DNA of 64,000 bases from Fusobacteria bacterium ZRK30 (GTDB lineage Bacteria; Fusobacteriota; Fusobacteriia; Fusobacteriales; Fusobacteriaceae). The position numbers and the translations under genes are program-made. The stretch is from positions 62,001 through 126,000 of the forward strand of contig CP102404.1 of the NCBI GenBank assembly GCA_024628785.1, in the 5' to 3' direction. Numbering within the stretch: the first letter of the stretch is position 1; each line of letters begins with the position of its first letter. Below are positions 16,001 to 41,557 of this stretch, piece after piece. The notes under the pieces were generated by a model. It had not been told where the DNA came from and did not search any database. It saw only the letters and a list, made by a program, of their open reading frames with translations.

Positions 16001-17327
16001 AGTCAAGGCAGGAGCCGATAAGGTAGTTATATCAGGATTTGACGGTGGAACAGGAGCAGCAGTGTCCTCATCTATGAAATTTACAGCTACCCCATGGGAA
16101 CTTGGTCTTTCAGATACCCACAAGGTTTTATGTGAAAATGAGCTGAGAGATCTGGTTAAACTTCAGGTAGATGGTGGAATAAAAACAGGGTACGACATTG
16201 TTGTAGCAGCTCTTCTGGGAGCAGATGAATATGCCTTTGGAAGCGGACTTCTTGTGGCTGAAGGCTGTATCTTCTGTAGAAGATGCCATACCAATTCATG
16301 TCCTGTAGGAATAACAACCCAAAGAGAGGAATTAAGAGAAAAATTCACCGGGTCACCAGAAGATATCCTTACATATTTAAAATTTATAGCATCTGAAGTA
16401 AGGGAACTCCTTGCATCTATAGGAGCTAAAAGTATAGAAGAAATAATTGGAAGATCTTCTCTTTTATCTTCTGATTTAGGTATTGGGTATAAGAGATCTA
16501 AGTTAAATTTTGATCCTATCTTCAGAGAGGTCAGAAGTCAAAAAGAATACTGTGGAAATATAAATATAGTAGATCCTTTAAATAAAATGATATGTCAAAT
16601 TTCAAATCATGGATATTTGAAATATCACGGAATAATTGATAATACAAATAGATCTTTTGGGACTACAGTAGCCGGAAAATCTCAGTTAGAGGCTTTCCAC
16701 AATAATGAAAAAACAGATTTAAATATAGAGCTCAGAGGATATTCTGGACAGAGTTTTGGAGCCTTTGCCGTAGAGGGACAGAAGATAACCTTGGAAGGTT
16801 ATGGAAATGACTATGTCGCTAAGGGTCTCTCTGGAGGAACTATTATAATCAAAAAACCCCAAGAGGCAGATTACCCGTCTAGTATGGGGTGTATCGCTGG
16901 AAATACAGTATTATATGGTGCTACAGGGGGAGAATTATACTTAAATGGTAGTGCTGGAGAACGATTTGCAGTAAGAAATTCTGGAGCTTCTGCTGTGGTA
17001 GAAGGTATAGGAAATCATGGCTGTGAATATATGACTGGAGGACTTGTTGTTATCCTAGGAAATACAGGAAATAACTTTGGAGCAGGAATGAGTGGAGGAA
17101 TAGCCTATCTGCTGAAAGAAAACTTTTTAGAATCCAATATAAATATGGATATGGTAGAGTGCTTTGATCTCAACGAAAATGATGTGGAAATCCTAGAAAA
17201 TTTGTTGAAAAATCATCTGGATCATACAAATAATAAGGTTGCAGGAGATCTTCTGGCAGTAGGAATCAAAAATAACTTTATAAAGATAGCCTCTAGAAGA
17301 TATTTGGAAAAAACAAAAAATATATAA
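13092..17327 (+). CDS. gltB: glutamate synthase large subunit (GOGAT)
   Basis: 1411 residues, slightly shorter than the usual 1480-1530. A six-residue propeptide precedes Cys7 (NCGIGVVAD), the nucleophile of the glutamine amidotransferase domain. The central and FMN-binding domains follow (VKLASEKGVGIIASG, FDGGTGAA, LQVDGGIKTG). The 3Fe-4S cluster ligands are C1059, C1065 and C1070 in the C-x5-C-x4-C pattern, with one extra cysteine (C1062). The C-terminal beta-helix domain is glycine-rich. No gltD follows; the next gene is convergent. It therefore works with a GltD encoded elsewhere or accepts electrons from ferredoxin. Confidence 0.96.
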   Translation: MKEHSNCGIGVVADINNVPQHQIVREGIKILNRLEHRGGTLRDGSGDGAGLLVQVPKDFFKEKVGIDGDYHVAMTFLPKDKLLRKICIDIILEEVSLAEGIMAGEREVPVKKEILGTSAKKSLPYIYQYFIEIPQNKNNFSAYNLRRSIEKRISAEGILKKDFYFASFSNKTVVYKGLITPKQFNEFYVDLSEESFKSAYVMIHQRFSTNTLPSWDLAQPFRTLEHNGEINTINGNTAWIEARKNDTYSKEYSKNQIEQIFPLTSPENSDSANLDSVVEFMMYTGKKLPEIVTTLVPQAWEKNNNLEKNLKEYYEAKSLVMEPWDGPAGLITSNGDEIFASLDRNGLRPMRYTITKDNKLIISSEMGVLDTEFSKIAYSGKLSAGEFLHLDLIEKKLLTRDEIIEKIVSGTDYNEEIKNLKKYSRVGEVKADLKIEEVEDLLERYSYTKEDIDMSIEHLANEGKEVVASTNYDVPLAVLDDKNPRLFFDYFKQKFAQVTNPPTDSIREKSIFSITSNFGGRKNLLDPTEDRGIIYQFTSPIVENKHIKELKQQNSAVISTEFQENIKKSLEDIIETAISNAELNKNIILTDRNTQRSIPILLAVSAVHHALIKKGLRGKIGLAAESGEIREITHYALLIGYGADLVNPYLVLEYLAVKKLDTVKYLKAVDSGIQKIMSKMGISSIASYRGAKIFESIGLSREFCNKYMGNTSSDLDGLDIEEIQREVIFREEAGYSHKKSIGEFVSIKNGLSHKNSYDMVKNLQEAIYSNDYTKYKEYSHDFHKIKGTLRDYFILNKNPIPLSQVESEESILKRFVAGAMSFGALSKEAHETIAIAFNSIGSMSNSGEGGEDTERLKDNRISQVKQIASGRFGVTANYLIHAKELQIKMAQGAKPGEGGHLPGHKVSDSIGKVRNTVPGTDLISPPPHHDIYSIEDLAQLIFDLKNLNTNAKVSVKLASEKGVGIIASGTVKAGADKVVISGFDGGTGAAVSSSMKFTATPWELGLSDTHKVLCENELRDLVKLQVDGGIKTGYDIVVAALLGADEYAFGSGLLVAEGCIFCRRCHTNSCPVGITTQREELREKFTGSPEDILTYLKFIASEVRELLASIGAKSIEEIIGRSSLLSSDLGIGYKRSKLNFDPIFREVRSQKEYCGNINIVDPLNKMICQISNHGYLKYHGIIDNTNRSFGTTVAGKSQLEAFHNNEKTDLNIELRGYSGQSFGAFAVEGQKITLEGYGNDYVAKGLSGGTIIIKKPQEADYPSSMGCIAGNTVLYGATGGELYLNGSAGERFAVRNSGASAVVEGIGNHGCEYMTGGLVVILGNTGNNFGAGMSGGIAYLLKENFLESNINMDMVECFDLNENDVEILENLLKNHLDHTNNKVAGDLLAVGIKNNFIKIASRRYLEKTKNI

Positions 17328-25771: not shown

Positions 25772-26885
25772 AAGGAAAAAGCAGAACTGATATTGGGGAA
25801 TGCAGTTACTTTATTCAGCATAGCAGGTATTTTATTCTCAGCCTTTGGTCTCTTATTCTTAGATGATATCCTTTTATTATTTGGAGCTACCTCTAACAAC
25901 ATCATGTATGCCAAAGATTATATGTCCGTTATTTTCTTTGCCATTCCATTTCAATTGCTCTTTATAGGAATAAATTATATTATCAGAGGTGAAGGAAACC
26001 CAAAAGTTGCCATGAAAATAAGTATCATAGGCTGGGGATTAAATATCTTACTGGATCCATTTTTCATGTTCACATTAGATATGGGAATAAAGGGAGCTGC
26101 CATGGCTACTTTAATTTCAAATAGCTTGGCATTTTACCTTCAACTCAGATATTTTTTAATAGGGGAGAGTAATATCAAATTAAAATTTAAAACTAAAAAA
26201 AGATATCCTCTTAGGTATATCAAATATTGGTATAGCACCATCTATTATGCATATATCCAATTCCCTAATACTTATTTCTATCAATAAAAATTTAAATATC
26301 TATGGAGGCGATATAGCCATTGCCGCCTACGGAATAATCAACAGCATCAGTGTCCTGAGATACATGCCAATTATAGGAATATATCAAGGAAGTCAGCCTA
26401 TTTTAGGATATAACTACGGTGCCAAAAAATTTGAAAGGGTCAGCGAGGCATATAAAATTTCCCTTCTAGCGGGTATTGGTATCTCAGCTATAGGATTTAT
26501 CATAGCTGTATTTATCCCCCATCTATTGATCTCACCATTTATCAACAACGATAAAAATTTATATGAGCTGACAATAAATTCCACAAAAATATTTTTCAGC
26601 ATGACTATCTTTATGGGATTTCATATGATTGGCAGCCGTTATTTCCAATCAGTAGGAAAAGCTAAAATAACTATTATCTTAAACATCATTCGTCAATTTT
26701 TCCTTCTCCTGCCTCTTCTACATTTCTTGCCTAAAAACTATGGGGTGAAGGGGGTTTGGTTAGCTATCCCTATTACAGATTTTCTCCTAGCTATAATCAC
26801 ATCATATTTCGTAATCAGAGAGTTTAAATTTTTAAAAAATGATTATAAAACCAGAGAGTCTTTTAATAAAGATCAAAGAACGTGA
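25772..26885 (+). pseudogene. MATE efflux protein, truncated and frameshifted
   Basis: It aligns throughout with the intact MATE at 27707 (same wording LFLDDILLLFGAT, MGIKGAA, GIYQGSQPILGYN) but lacks residues 1-85: homology starts at KEKAE without a start codon in a good context. The frame is also lost near 26204-26212 in an A7 run after KFKTKK; the continuing frame (KDILLGISNIGIAPSIM) runs to 26885. Both halves are otherwise well conserved, so the decay looks recent. It is a tandem paralogue of the downstream pump. Confidence 0.88.
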
Positions 26886-27706: not shown

Positions 27707-29074
27707 ATGAAAAACATAAGACTAGAATCAGAGAAGATATCAAAACTTTTATGGGAATATTCCATCCCAGCCATCACAGGAACTTTAGTTTATATCCTAT
27801 ACAATATCGTTGATAGGATTTTTATAAGTTTCGGTGTCGGAAGATTAGCTATTGCCGGAATAAGTATAGCCTTGCCGCTTTTCACCTTTATATTAGCTAC
27901 AGGATTATTCATAGGCGTCGGAGGAGGAGCCCTTATCTCCATAAACTTAGGAAAAAAAGACAAGGAAAAAGCAGAACAGATATTAGGAAATGCACTGACT
28001 TTATTTATTGGAATGGGTATTTTATTTTCAATTTTTGGCCTATTGTTCCTAGATGATATTCTTTTACTATTTGGTGCTACAGCAAATAACATCAATTATG
28101 CCAAAGATTATATGTCTATCATATTTTTCGCTACTACCTTTCAACTATTATTCATAGGAATGAATAATATTATGAGGGGAGAGGGCAATCCAAAAGCTGC
28201 CATGAAGATGAGTATCATAGGATGTGGATTAAACATTTTACTGGACCCACTCTTTATATTTACACTAGGCATGGGAATAAAAGGAGCTGCCATTGCTACA
28301 GTTATTTCAAATATACTTGTAGCAATACTTCAAATCAGACATTTCTTAAAGGGAAACAGCAATATAAAACTAAAACTAAAAAATTTGAAATTAAAAAAAG
28401 AGATCCTTATAGGGATAGCCAGTATCGGGATAGCTCCATTTATTATGCAGATGTCCAATTCTATCGTGGTTATCTTTATAAATAAAAACTTAAATATCTA
28501 CGGTGGGGATATTGCTATTGCTGCTTACGGAATAATTAACAGTATCAGTGTCCTCATGTATATGCCTATTGTAGGGATATATCAGGGAAGTCAGCCTATT
28601 TTAGGATATAATCATGGTGCTAAAAACTTTAAAAGAGTAAGAGAAACATATAAGCTATCTCTTTTAGTGGCTATGAGCATTTCAGCCACAGGATTTTTTG
28701 TAGCTATATTCTTGCCCCATCTGTTAATTACACCGTTTATCAACAACGATAAAACTTTATTCGAACTGACAATAAATGCAACTAAAATATTTTTCAGTAT
28801 GACCCTCTTTATGGGATTTCATATGATTGGAAGTAGTTATTTCCAAACTGTTGGAAAAGCCAAAATAACAACAGCTATAAATATCATTCGTCAGTTTATC
28901 CTCATGCTTCCGCTCCTCTATTTTTTACCTAAATACTACGGTGTAAATGGAGTTTGGTTAGCTGTTCCTATTACAGATTTCACCCTAGCTTTAATTACAT
29001 CATATTTTGTAATTAAAGAGTTCCAATCTCTAAAAAAGAAATCAAATTTAGAAGAATCAATTATAGAAATATAG
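27707..29074 (+). CDS. MATE-family multidrug/cation antiporter
   Basis: 455 residues, normal length, twelve hydrophobic segments. It begins with the usual KLLWEYSIPAITGTLVYILYNIVDRIFIS; the central NSIVVIFINKNL and GIYQGSQPILGYNHGAK are MATE signatures. Na+- or H+-driven export of cationic compounds from the inner membrane. It is cotranscribed with the marR gene and closed by the GTGTCGC hairpin. Confidence 0.93.
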   Translation: MKNIRLESEKISKLLWEYSIPAITGTLVYILYNIVDRIFISFGVGRLAIAGISIALPLFTFILATGLFIGVGGGALISINLGKKDKEKAEQILGNALTLFIGMGILFSIFGLLFLDDILLLFGATANNINYAKDYMSIIFFATTFQLLFIGMNNIMRGEGNPKAAMKMSIIGCGLNILLDPLFIFTLGMGIKGAAIATVISNILVAILQIRHFLKGNSNIKLKLKNLKLKKEILIGIASIGIAPFIMQMSNSIVVIFINKNLNIYGGDIAIAAYGIINSISVLMYMPIVGIYQGSQPILGYNHGAKNFKRVRETYKLSLLVAMSISATGFFVAIFLPHLLITPFINNDKTLFELTINATKIFFSMTLFMGFHMIGSSYFQTVGKAKITTAINIIRQFILMLPLLYFLPKYYGVNGVWLAVPITDFTLALITSYFVIKEFQSLKKKSNLEESIIEI

Positions 29075-29087
29075 ATTTTAAAAAAAA

Positions 29088-29118
29088 GCAAAAAGTGTCG
29101 CCGCGACACTTTTTGCTT
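29088..29118. terminator. GTGTCGC hairpin, copy 3
   Basis: AGCAAAAAGTGTCGC pairs perfectly with GCGACACTTTTTGCT around one base. It lies 14 bases after the intact MATE gene and may also serve the convergent gene at 29148. Confidence 0.85.
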
Positions 29119-29147
29119 TCTTTTAATTTAAATCTTATATCCTGAGT

Positions 29148-31247: not shown

Positions 31248-31333
31248 GCATCAGTGGCGGAATGGTAGACGCGTAAGGTTGAGGGCTTTATGGGAGTTTT
31301 CCTGTGGGGGTTCAAGTCCCCCCTGATGCACCA
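31248..31333 (+). tRNA. tRNA-Leu (anticodon GAG)
   Basis: Acceptor GCATCAG/CTGATGC, D stem GCG/CGC, anticodon stem TAAGG/CTTTA with loop TTGAGGG (anticodon GAG at 31281-31283), a long variable arm and T arm GGGGG/CCCCC with TTCAAGT. The CCA end is encoded (31331-31333). Class II structure fits leucine. Confidence 0.95.
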
Positions 31334-31373
31334 CGCTATCCCCCTACAAAAGGGATTTATATAATTAGATTTT

Positions 31374-31400
31374 AAAAGCTTCCAAATTGGAAGCTTTTGT
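31374..31400 (+). terminator. terminator after the tRNA
   Basis: AAAAGCTTCC, AAATT, GGAAGCTTTT then GTTTT. It nearly repeats the hairpin at 33721 on the other side of the PHP gene. Confidence 0.8.
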
Positions 31401-31455
31401 TTTACAAAAATAAAGTATTTTATAAAAATTATGATTAACTTAAATAAATTTTACT

Positions 31456-31490
31456 ATCTTTTATTAAATTTATTATAAACAATAAAAGAT
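31456..31490. repeat. inverted repeat upstream of the PHP gene
   Basis: ATCTTTTATT (31456-31465) and AATAAAAGAT (31481-31490), perfect 10-bp arms with a 15-base spacer, 38 bases before the gene start. Could be an operator or an RNA stem in the leader. Confidence 0.55.
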
Positions 31491-31528
31491 TATTACAGGT
31501 AGTGTATAAATTTAAACAAGGGGGAGTT

Positions 31529-33682
31529 ATGAATAAAAAAAATTTTAAAATCGATTTACATATTCACACTTTAGAATCTAGAGATTTTAAAGGTGATAAA
31601 TCAGAGAATTCATTAGATAAAGTTTTAGAAGAAGCTATAGAAGCAGAACTAGATTTGATATGTTTTACAGATCATTTTTCTGTAAAAGGATTTGACCAAT
31701 ATGATAAAAAGAAAAAAAAATTACTTGAAATGATCGATACTGCAAGAAGTTATGGTTTTTATGGTGAAGAACCTGAAAAATTAAAAAAACTTTATACAGC
31801 TGTTAAGGTTTTAATGGGTGTAGAAATTAAAGTTGATCCAGGAATACATTATTTAGTTATTTTTAATAAAAATATTACAATTGAAAAAGCTGAAGAATAC
31901 TTAATAAGTTTAACAGAATTAGATAATGAAAAAGCTCGCGAAACGTTTGGTGATCCTAAATATTCTATTCCATTAAATTCAAAACAATTTTTTCTTAAAA
32001 CATATGAAACATTTGGTGAAGATGCACTAATTATTGGAGCGCATGTTGATTCAAGTTCTGGTTTTTTCGAGACATTAAAACAATGTGGTGAAGCGAGATT
32101 AAAGATTCTTTCAGATCCGCTTCTTAAAGCAGTAGAGTTTAATAAAGTAGAAACAAAACAAAAAATAATTAAAAATTTTCTACCAGAAACAAATAGAGAA
32201 AATATTGCATTTATACAAAATTCAGATTTTCATGGGAAACCTGGTGAAAAACTAGGTAGTTTTTATTTTACTATTAGAGAAGATGATGAAAAATTAACTT
32301 TTGATTTAATAAAAAAAAGTTTTGAAAAAAATCAAGGAATTTCTACTGCTGTTGATACAGCAAAAGAACGATATGAATTATTAATAAAAAATGAAATAAA
32401 ATTTGACTTTGACATTGATAATTGTGGGTTTGATTCCCAAAAAGAACAATTAGCTAAAACTGTCTGTGCATTAAGTAATTCAGAAATAGGTATCATAAAT
32501 TTTAAAATCATTTTAAATAAAGCAAATAATGAAAAAGAAATCATCGATACTTTTACTAATGACTTATCTACATTTATCACAAAAAGTTTAGATGGCAATA
32601 TCCCTATTTTTAAACTTTCACATTTTAATTTTACAAAAGGTTCAAGCACAATTATTTTAAAACTTCCAGAAGGTAGAGATTTAATCCTTTATGAAGGATC
32701 TGCTTATATTTTAGATAAAAATGAAATAAGAAAAGGTACTTCTAATGAGATACAATCTATTGTCGCCAAAAAAATGTTTTATAAATTTGGAAAAACAGGA
32801 GAAAAAATTCTTCATAAAGTCAATGAACACTCTAAAAGACTTAAAAATAATTTACTAGGATATGCTATAGCGTATAAAGTAGAAAATAGTATAATTCCAT
32901 ATGATAAATTTAAAGTTAGAAAAGTAACATTTAATGATCATCCAAAAGAAATTTTAAATTTAATAGCTGATGGTCCAAGAAACGGGAACTCAGAAGGTGA
33001 TTATTCTATTATTTCCTTCAACCCAGGCACTTTAAAAGGTGGTCGATTAAAAAATAGTTACTCTAGGTTAAGTTTACCAACTTTTAAAATCAGTAACCTC
33101 AATTGTGAATGTAAAAAAAATGAAATAAAAAAAGGAGAAATATTAATAATCCCTAGAGGAGCATGTTTTGTCGCGGAAAAAGATTTAACTTTAATAATAG
33201 ACTGCGAAGCTTTAATATTAGAAATACCAAAAGATGATAACCCTTATGATCTTTTAATGTATTTAAAATCTAGCTTTTTTCAATGGTATATTGGCAAAAT
33301 TTATAATTTTAATGATGTGTTTGAGTGGGTTTATTCTTTTCAAAATAAAGGATTCCCAATTTTAAAAGAAATTGAAAATTTGAATAATATATCATTAAAA
33401 GCTAGTAATTTAATACTCGATGAGAAAAAGCTTTTAAAAGTAAATGAAAAGAAAAGATCAAAAGAATCAGAAATTGTCCGTAAAATAACTAAACATAATT
33501 CTAAAGGTGATAACGTTTGTAAAGAAATAGACGAAATTATTTTTAAGCATTTAAATTTAAAAGATGATGAAATTAAAGAAATTTATGAAGGTTTAAATAA
33601 TGTAGAAATTTATGATTATGGCGCTTTAGAAAAAATTAAAGAAGAAGAAGAAGAAAGCAAAAGCAAGAACTCTAAAGGATAG
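31529..33682 (+). CDS. PHP phosphoesterase + AlbA/Schlafen-like + TRD-like protein, 717 aa
   Basis: ATG 31529 (GGGGGAG five bases upstream) is preferred over an upstream GTG at 31502. The PHP domain (about 1-265) keeps its metal ligands: H11/H13 (DLHIHT), D48/H49 (FTDHF), E99 (GVEIKV), H107, H172 (GAHVDSS) and D233/H235 (NSDFHG). Residues about 275-405 look like an AlbA_2 (Schlafen) domain: AKTVCALSNSE-GIINF, then IILKLPEGRDLILYEGSAYI. Residues about 435-620 resemble a type I restriction specificity / TRD domain (KKGEILIIPRGACFV, DLLMYLKSSFFQWYIG). The C-terminus is charged. It is a single gene between a tRNA and a prophage integrase, A/T-rich, ending at a strong terminator. The metal-dependent phosphoesterase or nuclease role is family-based; the defence role is inference. 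Confidence 0.7.
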   Translation: MNKKNFKIDLHIHTLESRDFKGDKSENSLDKVLEEAIEAELDLICFTDHFSVKGFDQYDKKKKKLLEMIDTARSYGFYGEEPEKLKKLYTAVKVLMGVEIKVDPGIHYLVIFNKNITIEKAEEYLISLTELDNEKARETFGDPKYSIPLNSKQFFLKTYETFGEDALIIGAHVDSSSGFFETLKQCGEARLKILSDPLLKAVEFNKVETKQKIIKNFLPETNRENIAFIQNSDFHGKPGEKLGSFYFTIREDDEKLTFDLIKKSFEKNQGISTAVDTAKERYELLIKNEIKFDFDIDNCGFDSQKEQLAKTVCALSNSEIGIINFKIILNKANNEKEIIDTFTNDLSTFITKSLDGNIPIFKLSHFNFTKGSSTIILKLPEGRDLILYEGSAYILDKNEIRKGTSNEIQSIVAKKMFYKFGKTGEKILHKVNEHSKRLKNNLLGYAIAYKVENSIIPYDKFKVRKVTFNDHPKEILNLIADGPRNGNSEGDYSIISFNPGTLKGGRLKNSYSRLSLPTFKISNLNCECKKNEIKKGEILIIPRGACFVAEKDLTLIIDCEALILEIPKDDNPYDLLMYLKSSFFQWYIGKIYNFNDVFEWVYSFQNKGFPILKEIENLNNISLKASNLILDEKKLLKVNEKKRSKESEIVRKITKHNSKGDNVCKEIDEIIFKHLNLKDDEIKEIYEGLNNVEIYDYGALEKIKEEEEESKSKNSKG

Positions 33683-33720
33683 TAAATCCATTAACATTTT
33701 ATTCTTCAGTTTAGATAACC

Positions 33721-33750
33721 AAAAAGCTCCCAAATTTGGGAGCTTTTCTT
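33721..33750. terminator. terminator after the PHP gene
   Basis: AAAAAGCTCCC, AAATTT, GGGAGCTTTT with T tail. It lies between convergent genes and may also serve the integrase. Confidence 0.85.
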
Positions 33751-35149
33751 AATTAAAATATATATCAAACTGTGGATTCTTCTTATTATCATCACGCAGT
33801 TCTATCCTGTTAATGATAAACCTCATTATCTTTTTAGCATCATCAATATCTTCAGATTCTAAATTTTCCATAACATCTATAAACAATTCTAAATTATCAT
33901 TTCTTACAGCTAAGTTTTTTTCATTAGCCTTTATCTCTTCTAATTCATTGATTTCATTTTCATAGATAAGTATATCATTTTTAATCTCTTTTACCAGGTC
34001 GGCAAAGTCTTCATCTTCTATTAAGCCGGAGGCATAACTCCTAGTTATTCTTTTTCTCTTGTTTTTAGATTTAGATATTTTAACTCTTAATCTCTCTATC
34101 TCTAATACATAATTGGCAGCTTTAAGACCTTCGGCATTATTTAAATCCTTTAGTTCTTTTAAAGCATATATTTGTTTTAATAATTTAGTTTCTAACTTCT
34201 TCCTAGGAATCTTTAATTTACAACACTTATTATCACACTGATAATAATGATAATTTTTTTTAGTATTTCTTAAAGTTGAGTTATACATCTTATTTCCACA
34301 GGCACACGTAATCAATCCGGCAAATAAAGCTCCACTAGTTGAGAATTCAATCCTTCTCTTAGTATTTAATTTTAGTATTATCTGTACTTTTTCAAATATC
34401 TCTTCTGGCACTATCCCTTCATGTTCACCATCAAAGACCTCATAATCTAATTTTGTTTCCTGTTTATGGGTCATTAAGTTTTTTTCTTTTTGTCCCCATT
34501 TCTTTTTTCCTATATATGTTTCATTTTTAAGAATCCACCTGATCGATTCATTATTTCTATTAAACTTCTTCGCAGTTTTGGCCATAGACTGGCAACTGAT
34601 ATAGTAGTAGAAAATATCACTGACTAATTCAGCATCTTTATTTGGTATTAATTTTTTATCGATAACATCGTATCCAAGGGGAGCTGTTCCTCCGGTAAAC
34701 ATCCCTACCTTGGCTCTCTCATATTTCCCTGACTTTACCCTGATTGAAATTTGTTTCCTTTCATACTCGGCCAACGATGCCTGGATTTGAAAAAATAACA
34801 TCCCTGTGGCGGTAGTTGTATTTAGATCAGGCTGAGAGATTGAAATAAATTTTATATCCTGTTCCTGCAACTCTAATACAAACTGGATCATTGTAATCAT
34901 CTTCCTGGAGATCCTGGAAGCTTCATAAACTACAAGTACATCAAAAGTCCTGGCTTTTATATCTTTTTGCAATTCTAAAAAACCGTCTCTATCATCTCTG
35001 CCACCTGACTCTACATCTGTGATAATTTTAGTCAATTCAATATTTTGTGATTTCGAATAATTTTTTCCTTTTTCAATTTGATATTTTAAAGATTCTTTTT
35101 CTTCCTGCATCTCAGTTGAAACTCTGCAATACAAAATTCCTTTAAGCAT
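33749..35149 (-). CDS. serine recombinase (phage integrase)
   Basis: 466 residues. The N-terminal resolvase domain has the nucleophile Ser11 (YCRVSTEMQ) and the downstream arginine-rich helix SLAEYERKQISIRVKSG. The recombinase domain follows (about 155-260), then a zinc ribbon (CACGNKMY ... CDNKCC) and a C-terminal coiled coil (ERLRVKISKSKNKRKRI and beyond), the plan of large serine integrases. It should catalyse phage attP x attB integration. It lies at the element's end and reads outward. Its start overlaps a 27-residue ORF. Confidence 0.95.
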   Translation of the reverse strand: MLKGILYCRVSTEMQEEKESLKYQIEKGKNYSKSQNIELTKIITDVESGGRDDRDGFLELQKDIKARTFDVLVVYEASRISRKMITMIQFVLELQEQDIKFISISQPDLNTTTATGMLFFQIQASLAEYERKQISIRVKSGKYERAKVGMFTGGTAPLGYDVIDKKLIPNKDAELVSDIFYYYISCQSMAKTAKKFNRNNESIRWILKNETYIGKKKWGQKEKNLMTHKQETKLDYEVFDGEHEGIVPEEIFEKVQIILKLNTKRRIEFSTSGALFAGLITCACGNKMYNSTLRNTKKNYHYYQCDNKCCKLKIPRKKLETKLLKQIYALKELKDLNNAEGLKAANYVLEIERLRVKISKSKNKRKRITRSYASGLIEDEDFADLVKEIKNDILIYENEINELEEIKANEKNLAVRNDNLELFIDVMENLESEDIDDAKKIMRFIINRIELRDDNKKNPQFDIYFN

Positions 35150-40477: not shown

Positions 40478-41557
40478 ATGAAAAATATCCCTAACGAATT
40501 ATATGAAGAAATTAAGTCTAATATGAAAAGACCAGAAGGAACTGTAACATTTGAATATCGAAATCCTGAGTTGTTTAATTCAAAATCAACTGGCGGTACT
40601 ATACTTGAAGTAATTACAGGAGATCACATTTTTTTACTGCAACAAAGTTGTGATTTTAAATTAAAGTTTATACATTTTTCACCTGGAACTGAAACGAGAG
40701 TCGCTATTATTGATTTAAAAAAAATCAAAAAATCACCGAATGTATTAATAATTTTGAGATGGTCTACTTCTGAAATAAAACTTTCTATTTCTCCAGCTCC
40801 ATTAATTAAAGTCGAGGACCTGACTACATCTATAGGCATAAAATCAGATACAAGTTATAGAGTTATTGACGGTAATATATTAGAAATAGGAGGTCCTAAT
40901 ACAGTTGTTATGGGTACAAGGATTATGTCAGAAGGAAAATGTGTTTTGGCACCTACAGCTATCGAAACTTGGAACAATACTATCGATGCGATTAAAATTT
41001 TACAAAGTAGTGAATCGGAGAAAGGTTATTCACATGAAGTTGTATTAAGTAATTTAACCATCTCAACACTTGTAACTGGATTCGAAACATATGCTATGAA
41101 AAGGTGCATTGAGATTAGTAAAGAAGGAGTTCAACCAGATATTCCTTCTTTAGTTAAACGAGTTTATTCAACATATGAACGAGAAAATGACTATCCTAAA
41201 CATGATGAAATCAAGGCAAAGGAGAAAGGCAATTCGTTTTATGAGGAATTAATAACAAATATGGTTAATTTTCAAAGTTATCAAGAATGTAAGCAAGCAT
41301 TTTCTAAATCTTATGGAATTAAATTTGGAGAGATTGATTATACTGCCAATTTATTAGAAAACTTGCAAAAAATAATTAAATTTAGACACAAGATTATCCA
41401 TGTTTCTCCAATGTTAACAATAATAAATGAAGAAGAAGTTCCGAAAGAAAAACCTATATTTTCAAATAAAGATTATGCAGAAAAGTCTATTAATACGTTT
41501 AATGAGTTTATTCAAAAACTCCATAATACTACTTTAAAACTACAACGGGTAGACTAA
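40478..41557 (+). CDS. HEPN-domain protein, candidate abortive-infection factor
   Basis: 359 residues. The N-terminal half (about 1-165) is beta-rich and unrecognised. The C-terminal half is helical (about 180-355) and ends with the HEPN RNase signature R-x4-H: RHKIIH, Arg303 to His308, between two helices. It follows the repressor by 85 bases with its own ribosome site (GGAGG), the usual place for lysogenic-conversion genes. An RNase acting when another phage infects is inferred from the motif and location. Confidence 0.65.
   Translation: MKNIPNELYEEIKSNMKRPEGTVTFEYRNPELFNSKSTGGTILEVITGDHIFLLQQSCDFKLKFIHFSPGTETRVAIIDLKKIKKSPNVLIILRWSTSEIKLSISPAPLIKVEDLTTSIGIKSDTSYRVIDGNILEIGGPNTVVMGTRIMSEGKCVLAPTAIETWNNTIDAIKILQSSESEKGYSHEVVLSNLTISTLVTGFETYAMKRCIEISKEGVQPDIPSLVKRVYSTYERENDYPKHDEIKAKEKGNSFYEELITNMVNFQSYQECKQAFSKSYGIKFGEIDYTANLLENLQKIIKFRHKIIHVSPMLTIINEEEVPKEKPIFSNKDYAEKSINTFNEFIQKLHNTTLKLQRVD

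What the first reader, a model, noticed from the sequence alone, without database searches (positions are those of the whole stretch)
31529..33682. Solitary PHP-AlbA/Schlafen-TRD protein at a tRNA/prophage boundary: candidate new defence effector
Seen: all PHP metal ligands are intact (H11, H13, D48, H49, E99, H107, H172, D233, H235), followed by AKTVCALSNSE and EGSAYI wording like AlbA_2/Schlafen, and a C-terminal region reading like a type I restriction specificity domain (KKGEILIIPRGA, LLMYLKSSFFQWYIG). Known: TrlF-type proteins join PHP to an ATPase, AlbA/Schlafen domains occur in antiphage proteins, and tRNA-prophage junctions are defence hotspots. Inference: a single-gene system in which the TRD-like part recognises DNA or a DNA-bound complex and the PHP part cleaves nucleic acid or nucleotides. 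I do not know of a described system with this domain order.
Basis: partly seen in the sequence, partly recalled or inferred. Interest (0 to 1): 0.82.

Follow-up and report, generated by a model that had tools for sequence, protein, structure and literature searches.

The report
Prophage-edge PHP–Schlafen-lobe enzyme gene
A foreign-looking gene wedged between a tRNA and a prophage's recombinase encodes a metal-dependent PHP nuclease-type enzyme fused to an apparently dead Schlafen (AlbA) lobe, a pairing otherwise found here only as a chromosomal gene of Chloroflexota; it may be phage-defence cargo, but nothing yet proves that.

Summary
The ORF is real (717 aa) and the PHP and AlbA calls hold. 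All nine PHP metal ligands are present, and the model's PHP domain matches Endonuclease Q (Z 20). The AlbA_2 domain is sub-threshold in Pfam, but homologues, a profile match to Schlafen and fold comparison support it; it lacks the nuclease glutamates, so it is probably a binding lobe. The TRD claim is not established: no family hits, unfolded model, at best a weak tail resemblance to type IIG enzymes (7 of 486 shuffles do as well). The fusion is not unique: Chloroflexota carry a PHP–AlbA gene (22 of 151 genomes), and the window protein joins that clade rather than TrlF/Ppl (96% support; identical 50-residue ligand spacing). In Anaerolineae the gene often lies among lon, a response regulator and mogA, not defence genes. 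Here it is a lone, low-GC3 insertion (11.8% versus 26–31% in most neighbouring genes) between tRNA-Leu and a serine recombinase; a sister genome has the same junction without it. Best reading: prophage cargo encoding a PHP phosphodiesterase/nuclease, perhaps for superinfection defence. Defence rests on location and distant kinship with Ppl only. New variant of a known kind; moderate interest.

The parts
31248..31333 (+). tRNA-Leu (gag), 3' end of which borders the prophage (attachment-site region)
   Evidence: ARAGORN; similarity with relative G002 ends exactly at the tRNA 3' end; a 78-80% copy of the tRNA 3' end plus downstream hairpin lies at G000:C1:130282, just past phage-type genes
31362..31401 (.). 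Left copy of a ~40 bp terminator-hairpin repeat (AAAAGCTTCCAAATTGGAAGCTTTT); left edge of the insertion
   Evidence: homology to sister genome G007 ends at ~31401
31402..33710 (+). Inserted segment carrying the single gene; absent from sister genome G007 at the otherwise identical junction
   Evidence: blastn of window against G007: 31402-33710 missing, both flanks present (90.7% and 84.6% identity)
31529..33682 (+). PHP-AlbA_2 protein gene, 717 aa; GC 25.2%, GC3 11.8%
31529..32338 (+). PHP domain (residues 1-270), nine metal ligands present
   Evidence: PF02811 E 3.3e-8; TrlF model E 1.5e-21 over residues 6-215; Endonuclease Q Z 20.3, rmsd 3.0-3.1, 228 aligned; ligands conserved
32354..32839 (+). 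AlbA_2 / Schlafen-lobe domain (residues ~276-437), lacking the ExxxxEFK nuclease motif
32840..33679 (+). Orphan C-terminal region (residues ~438-717), no identified family; tail 631-685 weakly like type IIG C-termini
33711..33750 (.). Right copy of the terminator-hairpin repeat (AAAAAGCTCCCAAATTTGGGAGCTTTT), shared with the recombinase 3' end
33749..35149 (-). Large serine recombinase, probable integrase of the prophage; 90% identical in G007
   Evidence: Resolvase/Recombinase/Zn_ribbon_recom

Best explanation
A prophage cargo gene, flanked by terminator hairpins, placed between the tRNA-Leu attachment region and the integrase. Its product is a metal-dependent PHP phosphodiesterase, most likely a nuclease. 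A Schlafen-type AlbA lobe that has lost its own catalytic residues would act as a nucleic-acid-binding or dimerisation arm, and a rapidly evolving C-terminal part would decide what is recognised. In the lysogen it probably acts against competing phages or plasmids, as distantly related PHP proteins (Ppl) do, but without their ATPase. Shown: gene, position, insertion, foreign composition, domain folds (by prediction), intact PHP ligands, absent Schlafen catalytic motif, membership of the PHP-AlbA clade. Inferred: nuclease activity, the binding role of the AlbA lobe, C-terminal recognition, and defence.
For: PHP ligands intact and conserved; best fold match Endonuclease Q, a DNA endonuclease, then other PHP proteins including RNase AM and Pol III PHP. 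TrlF/Ppl are the nearest PHP relatives outside its clade; Ppl is reported as a single-gene 3'-5' ssDNA exonuclease defence acting through its PHP domain (PMC12904381). AlbA lobe related to Schlafen and similar in fold to the SAMD9 tRNase/DNA-binding domain, with the catalytic motif missing. Single-gene 2.3 kb insertion at the tRNA/integrase edge, absent in sister genome G007, GC3 11.8%. An OLD-family ATPase/TOPRIM gene (PADLOC Old, 229 bits) lies at the other end of the element.
Against: The nearest full PHP-AlbA homologues lie in Chloroflexota neighbourhoods of the lon / response regulator / mogA type and recur through families, which does not look like defence. No PADLOC match. No second prophage-borne member found: nothing in phages or viral contigs, only TrlF PHP domains in plasmids. 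No experiment; Ppl acts together with an NTPase domain that this protein lacks.
Confidence: 0.4

Rival explanations
1. A phosphoesterase with the same unknown cellular (stress or repair) role as the Chloroflexota PHP-AlbA proteins, picked up by the prophage by chance and not serving defence.
For: Clade membership: 96% support and identical 50-residue H49-E99 spacing against 25-39 in TrlF; Anaerolineae gene order of the lon / response regulator / mogA type; recurrence in 22 of 151 Chloroflexota genomes.
Against: Only 21-26% identical, different C-terminal part, mobile setting, very different composition.
Confidence: 0.3
2. One reading: a restriction-like single-gene system in which a C-terminal target-recognition domain directs PHP cleavage to DNA sequences or DNA-bound complexes.
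For: C-terminal tail aligns with the end of a type IIG (Eco57I/TaqI_C) enzyme, z 4.8 against 60 shuffles, best of 18 proteins tried; with a bacterial type IIG profile built without that sequence only 7 of 486 shuffles do as well.
Against: No TRD family hit, HsdS profile at shuffle level, profile that includes archaeal sequences but not that enzyme gives nothing (236 of 497 shuffles do as well), model unfolded there; no methylase partner beside the gene.
Confidence: 0.12
3. A phage function: a PHP endonuclease for DNA processing or lesion repair, or a counter-defence enzyme acting on nucleotides or RNA.
For: Fold match to Endonuclease Q and other PHP nucleases; several phage polymerases carry PHP domains.
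Against: Not in a phage module; convergent to the integrase and absent from the related prophage at the same site.
Confidence: 0.1
4. A decaying or non-functional gene.
For: Solitary, strongly AT-rich, C-terminus without relatives.
Against: 717-codon open frame with all PHP ligands and a good ribosome-binding-like site.
Confidence: 0.08

Closest known systems
Chloroflexota PHP-AlbA_2 proteins (unnamed; e.g. L043, L044, L045, L048, L049)
   Same: PHP with identical 50-residue spacing between H49 and E99, then AlbA_2 lacking the nuclease motif; alignment over residues 2-433 in the best cases; one clade with 96% support
   Different: C-terminus is a ~75-residue module not found in the window protein; chromosomal, often near lon, a response regulator and mogA
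TrlF family (NF045780) and anti-phage protein Ppl (NF042955)
   Same: Related PHP domain with the same ligand set; single genes, many on plasmids
   Different: They continue into a P-loop SMC-like ATPase of ~600 residues; here no P-loop, and the PHP forms a separate clade
Schlafen / AlbA_2 (PF04326) RNases
   Same: Sequence-profile and fold similarity of residues ~279-446 to SLFN proteins, DIP2311 and SAMD9
   Different: Single lobe; the catalytic acidic residues are not conserved
Endonuclease Q
   Same: PHP fold, best structural match (Z 20.3)
   Different: 18% identity; different downstream domain; Endonuclease Q is a lesion-specific DNA endonuclease, an activity untested here

Membership tests
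TrlF / Ppl | N-terminal PHP domain of the TrlF type | tested here: met
   NF045780 E 1.5e-21 over residues 6-215, ligands aligned
TrlF / Ppl | C-terminal P-loop SMC-like ATPase; whole-protein score above cut-off | tested here: not met
   76.9 bits against 350; no P-loop in the sequence; residues ~276-437 are AlbA_2
TrlF / Ppl | PHP phylogenetically inside TrlF | tested here: not met
   split from TrlF together with the PHP-AlbA clade, 96% UFBoot; long branch, so some caution
PHP-AlbA clade (Chloroflexota) | PHP + AlbA_2 aligned through residue ~430 | tested here: met
   blastp E 4e-14 to 5e-21; four of the six hits reach residues 412-433
PHP-AlbA clade (Chloroflexota) | C-terminal module and lon/mogA-type neighbourhood | tested here: not met
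   C-terminus not alike; prophage edge
Schlafen / AlbA_2 RNase | AlbA_2 fold | tested here: met
   Pfam on the window protein alone is below cut-off
Schlafen / AlbA_2 RNase | catalytic acidic residues (ExxxxEFK ... D) | tested here: not met
   motif absent in alignment of the window protein and its Chloroflexota homologues; by alignment only
Type I HsdS / TRD proteins | TRD sequence or fold in the C-terminal region | tested here: inconclusive
   no reliable model
Known anti-phage defence systems (PADLOC) | match to a defence model | tested here: not met
   none at E<=1 for the whole protein or E<=10 for its AlbA and C-terminal parts
Ppl-like exonuclease defence | 3'-5' exonuclease activity and protection from phages | not testable with these tools
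   needs experiment

The most novel reading that the evidence does not exclude
A new single-gene defence family: an ATPase-free PHP nuclease whose target is chosen by a dead Schlafen lobe and a fast-evolving C-terminal recognition domain, recruited from a chromosomal enzyme into prophages.
Probability: 0.18. Interest if true: 0.75.

Novelty: new variant of a known kind. Interest (0 to 1): 0.45.

Why it matters
If active, it would show that PHP nucleases can work in mobile elements without the SMC-like ATPase of TrlF/Ppl and that a catalytically dead Schlafen lobe can serve as a targeting part. It also exposes an unnamed, recurrent PHP-AlbA gene of Chloroflexota whose role is testable.

Tried and rejected
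Single-sequence AlphaFold model: useless (mean pLDDT 32). Close-relative scans of viral and genome contigs with the protein: nothing. Plasmid and phage tblastn: only TrlF PHP domains. The G350 match to the C-terminus was rejected: a broken frame antisense to a valS-like gene. G065, G331 and G1180 matches were AlbA-only. PHP-AlbA profile in 398 genomes of Moorella's phylum and 395 of Labilibaculum's: no full-length member; the first has no positive control and only four candidates per genome were scored. HsdS profile and type IIG profiles for the C-terminus: nothing and borderline. Paper searches for PHP with Schlafen, AlbA or TrlF found no description of the architecture. No Foldseek or VIA-align match informs residues 447-717, because that part of the model is unreliable.

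Full report
Observation. The gene at 31529-33682 (+) is an intact 717-residue frame. Upstream lies tRNA-Leu (31248-31333); downstream, convergent, a large serine recombinase (33749-35149) and then a ParA-like ATPase, an S24-type repressor and phage head and tail genes.

The gene is an insertion. In sister genome G007 the tRNA-Leu side (91% identity) runs straight into the recombinase side (85% identity; recombinase 90% at protein level) with nothing between, and a ~40 bp terminator hairpin stands once there but on both sides of the gene here. So 31402-33710 came in, or was lost in the sister, as one single-gene unit. Its GC3 is 11.8% against 26-31% in eight of nine other window genes measured (18% in ORF 40478-41557). 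The prophage seems to end about 37 kb to the right, where a 78-80% copy of the tRNA 3' end and hairpin occurs at G000:C1:130282, beyond an OLD-type ATPase/TOPRIM gene.

Domains. PHP: PF02811 E 3.3e-8; TrlF model E 1.5e-21 over residues 6-215 only; all nine ligands conserved in 35-39 of 39 aligned sequences. With 39 sequences AlphaFold gives pLDDT mostly above 80 for residues 1-265, and the best structural match is Endonuclease Q, Z 20.3, 228 residues, rmsd 3.0-3.1. AlbA: sub-threshold in Pfam on its own (14.8-18.6 bits, cut-off 25.3) but clear in homologues (52-69 bits) and by profile against Schlafens; the profile matches both Schlafen lobes. The ExxxxEFK and downstream aspartate of Schlafen RNases (known to me from the literature) are missing here, and the ExxxxEFK motif is missing in the Chloroflexota proteins too, so I read it as a non-catalytic lobe. 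The C-terminal 280 residues have no family, no plasmid or viral-contig homologue and no reliable model. A match of the last part to the C-terminus of a type IIG enzyme (z 4.8, best of 18 proteins tried) survives only weakly when that enzyme is left out of the profile (7 of 486 shuffles equal or exceed it with bacterial sequences only; nothing when archaeal ones are added), and an HsdS profile sees nothing. TRD is therefore a hint, not a finding.

Relatives. A scan of genome contigs with a PHP profile returned 80 loci: most are TrlF-type proteins with a P-loop ATPase, but six are PHP-AlbA_2 proteins without a TrlF-type P-loop ATPase, mostly from Chloroflexota. Within the aligned set the window protein groups with these six (96% UFBoot) and shares exactly 50 residues between H49 and E99, where TrlF proteins have 25-39. 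It is on a long branch, so the grouping should be held with some caution, but the spacing is further support. A profile of the clade finds it in 22 of 151 genomes of the phylum of G156 (Chloroflexota by inference from the homologues), but among the genomes of the window's own phylum only in the window, and full-length in none of ~790 sampled genomes of two other phyla. In Anaerolineae it often lies among lon, a response regulator and mogA. This is not a defence setting.

Mechanism. The safest statement is a metal-dependent PHP phosphodiesterase with a Schlafen-lobe arm and an unknown recognition part. Its position at the prophage edge, the sporadic presence, the foreign composition and the kinship of its PHP with Ppl, which a review describes as a 3'-5' ssDNA exonuclease defence (PMC12904381), make superinfection defence the single most likely role (0.4), with a cellular role inherited from the Chloroflexota lineage close behind (0.3).

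Novelty. The domain order PHP-AlbA is not new in nature, though I found no description of it in the searched papers. The prophage-borne version with an orphan C-terminus is a new variant. It is not a member of TrlF/Ppl (ATPase absent, separate clade) nor a Schlafen RNase (catalytic motif absent).

Noticed in passing
L024:2400-4208 (G000:C1:128399-130207, ~2.4 kb right of the window end): OLD-family ATPase/TOPRIM gene at the right end of the prophage, next to the att-like tRNA 3'-end copy; PADLOC Old 229 bits.
   Followed up: partly
L024:4252-4361 and 16566-16675: Two 85%-identical copies of a tRNA-Leu 3'-end plus hairpin segment 12.3 kb apart, suggesting tandem integration at this tRNA; the stretch between carries metabolic genes (nitrite/sulfite reductase-like, NhaC-like, ACC deaminase-like).
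   Followed up: partly
window 25793-26885 versus 27707-29074: A MATE-type transporter gene split by an apparent frameshift sits just upstream of an intact close paralogue.
   Followed up: no
window 40478-41557: Orphan 359-aa prophage gene beside the repressor, low GC3 (18%), no family; possible second cargo gene.
   Followed up: no
window ~29081-29127 and many places in L025: A palindromic intergenic repeat of ~35-45 bp found at several places in related genomes.
   Followed up: no
L038:2989-5577: Listeria plasmid TrlF whose PHP motifs are altered (TNHN for TDHN, SDCK for SDxH): probably an inactive PHP kept with the ATPase.
   Followed up: no
L057 and L067:7986-8768: Photobacterium TrlF-type PHP domains as stand-alone 260-aa frames without the ATPase in the same frame.
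   Followed up: no
L111:4819-10727: A type IIG (Eco57I/TaqI_C) enzyme ends directly in front of a TrlF gene in a Leptospiraceae genome.
   Followed up: no
L123 and L124: C-terminal ~75-residue module (GVEIV...VRDLR...FFGVS/YYGVT...W) apparently repeated in the longer PHP-AlbA proteins; no Pfam family found in the shorter ones.
   Followed up: no
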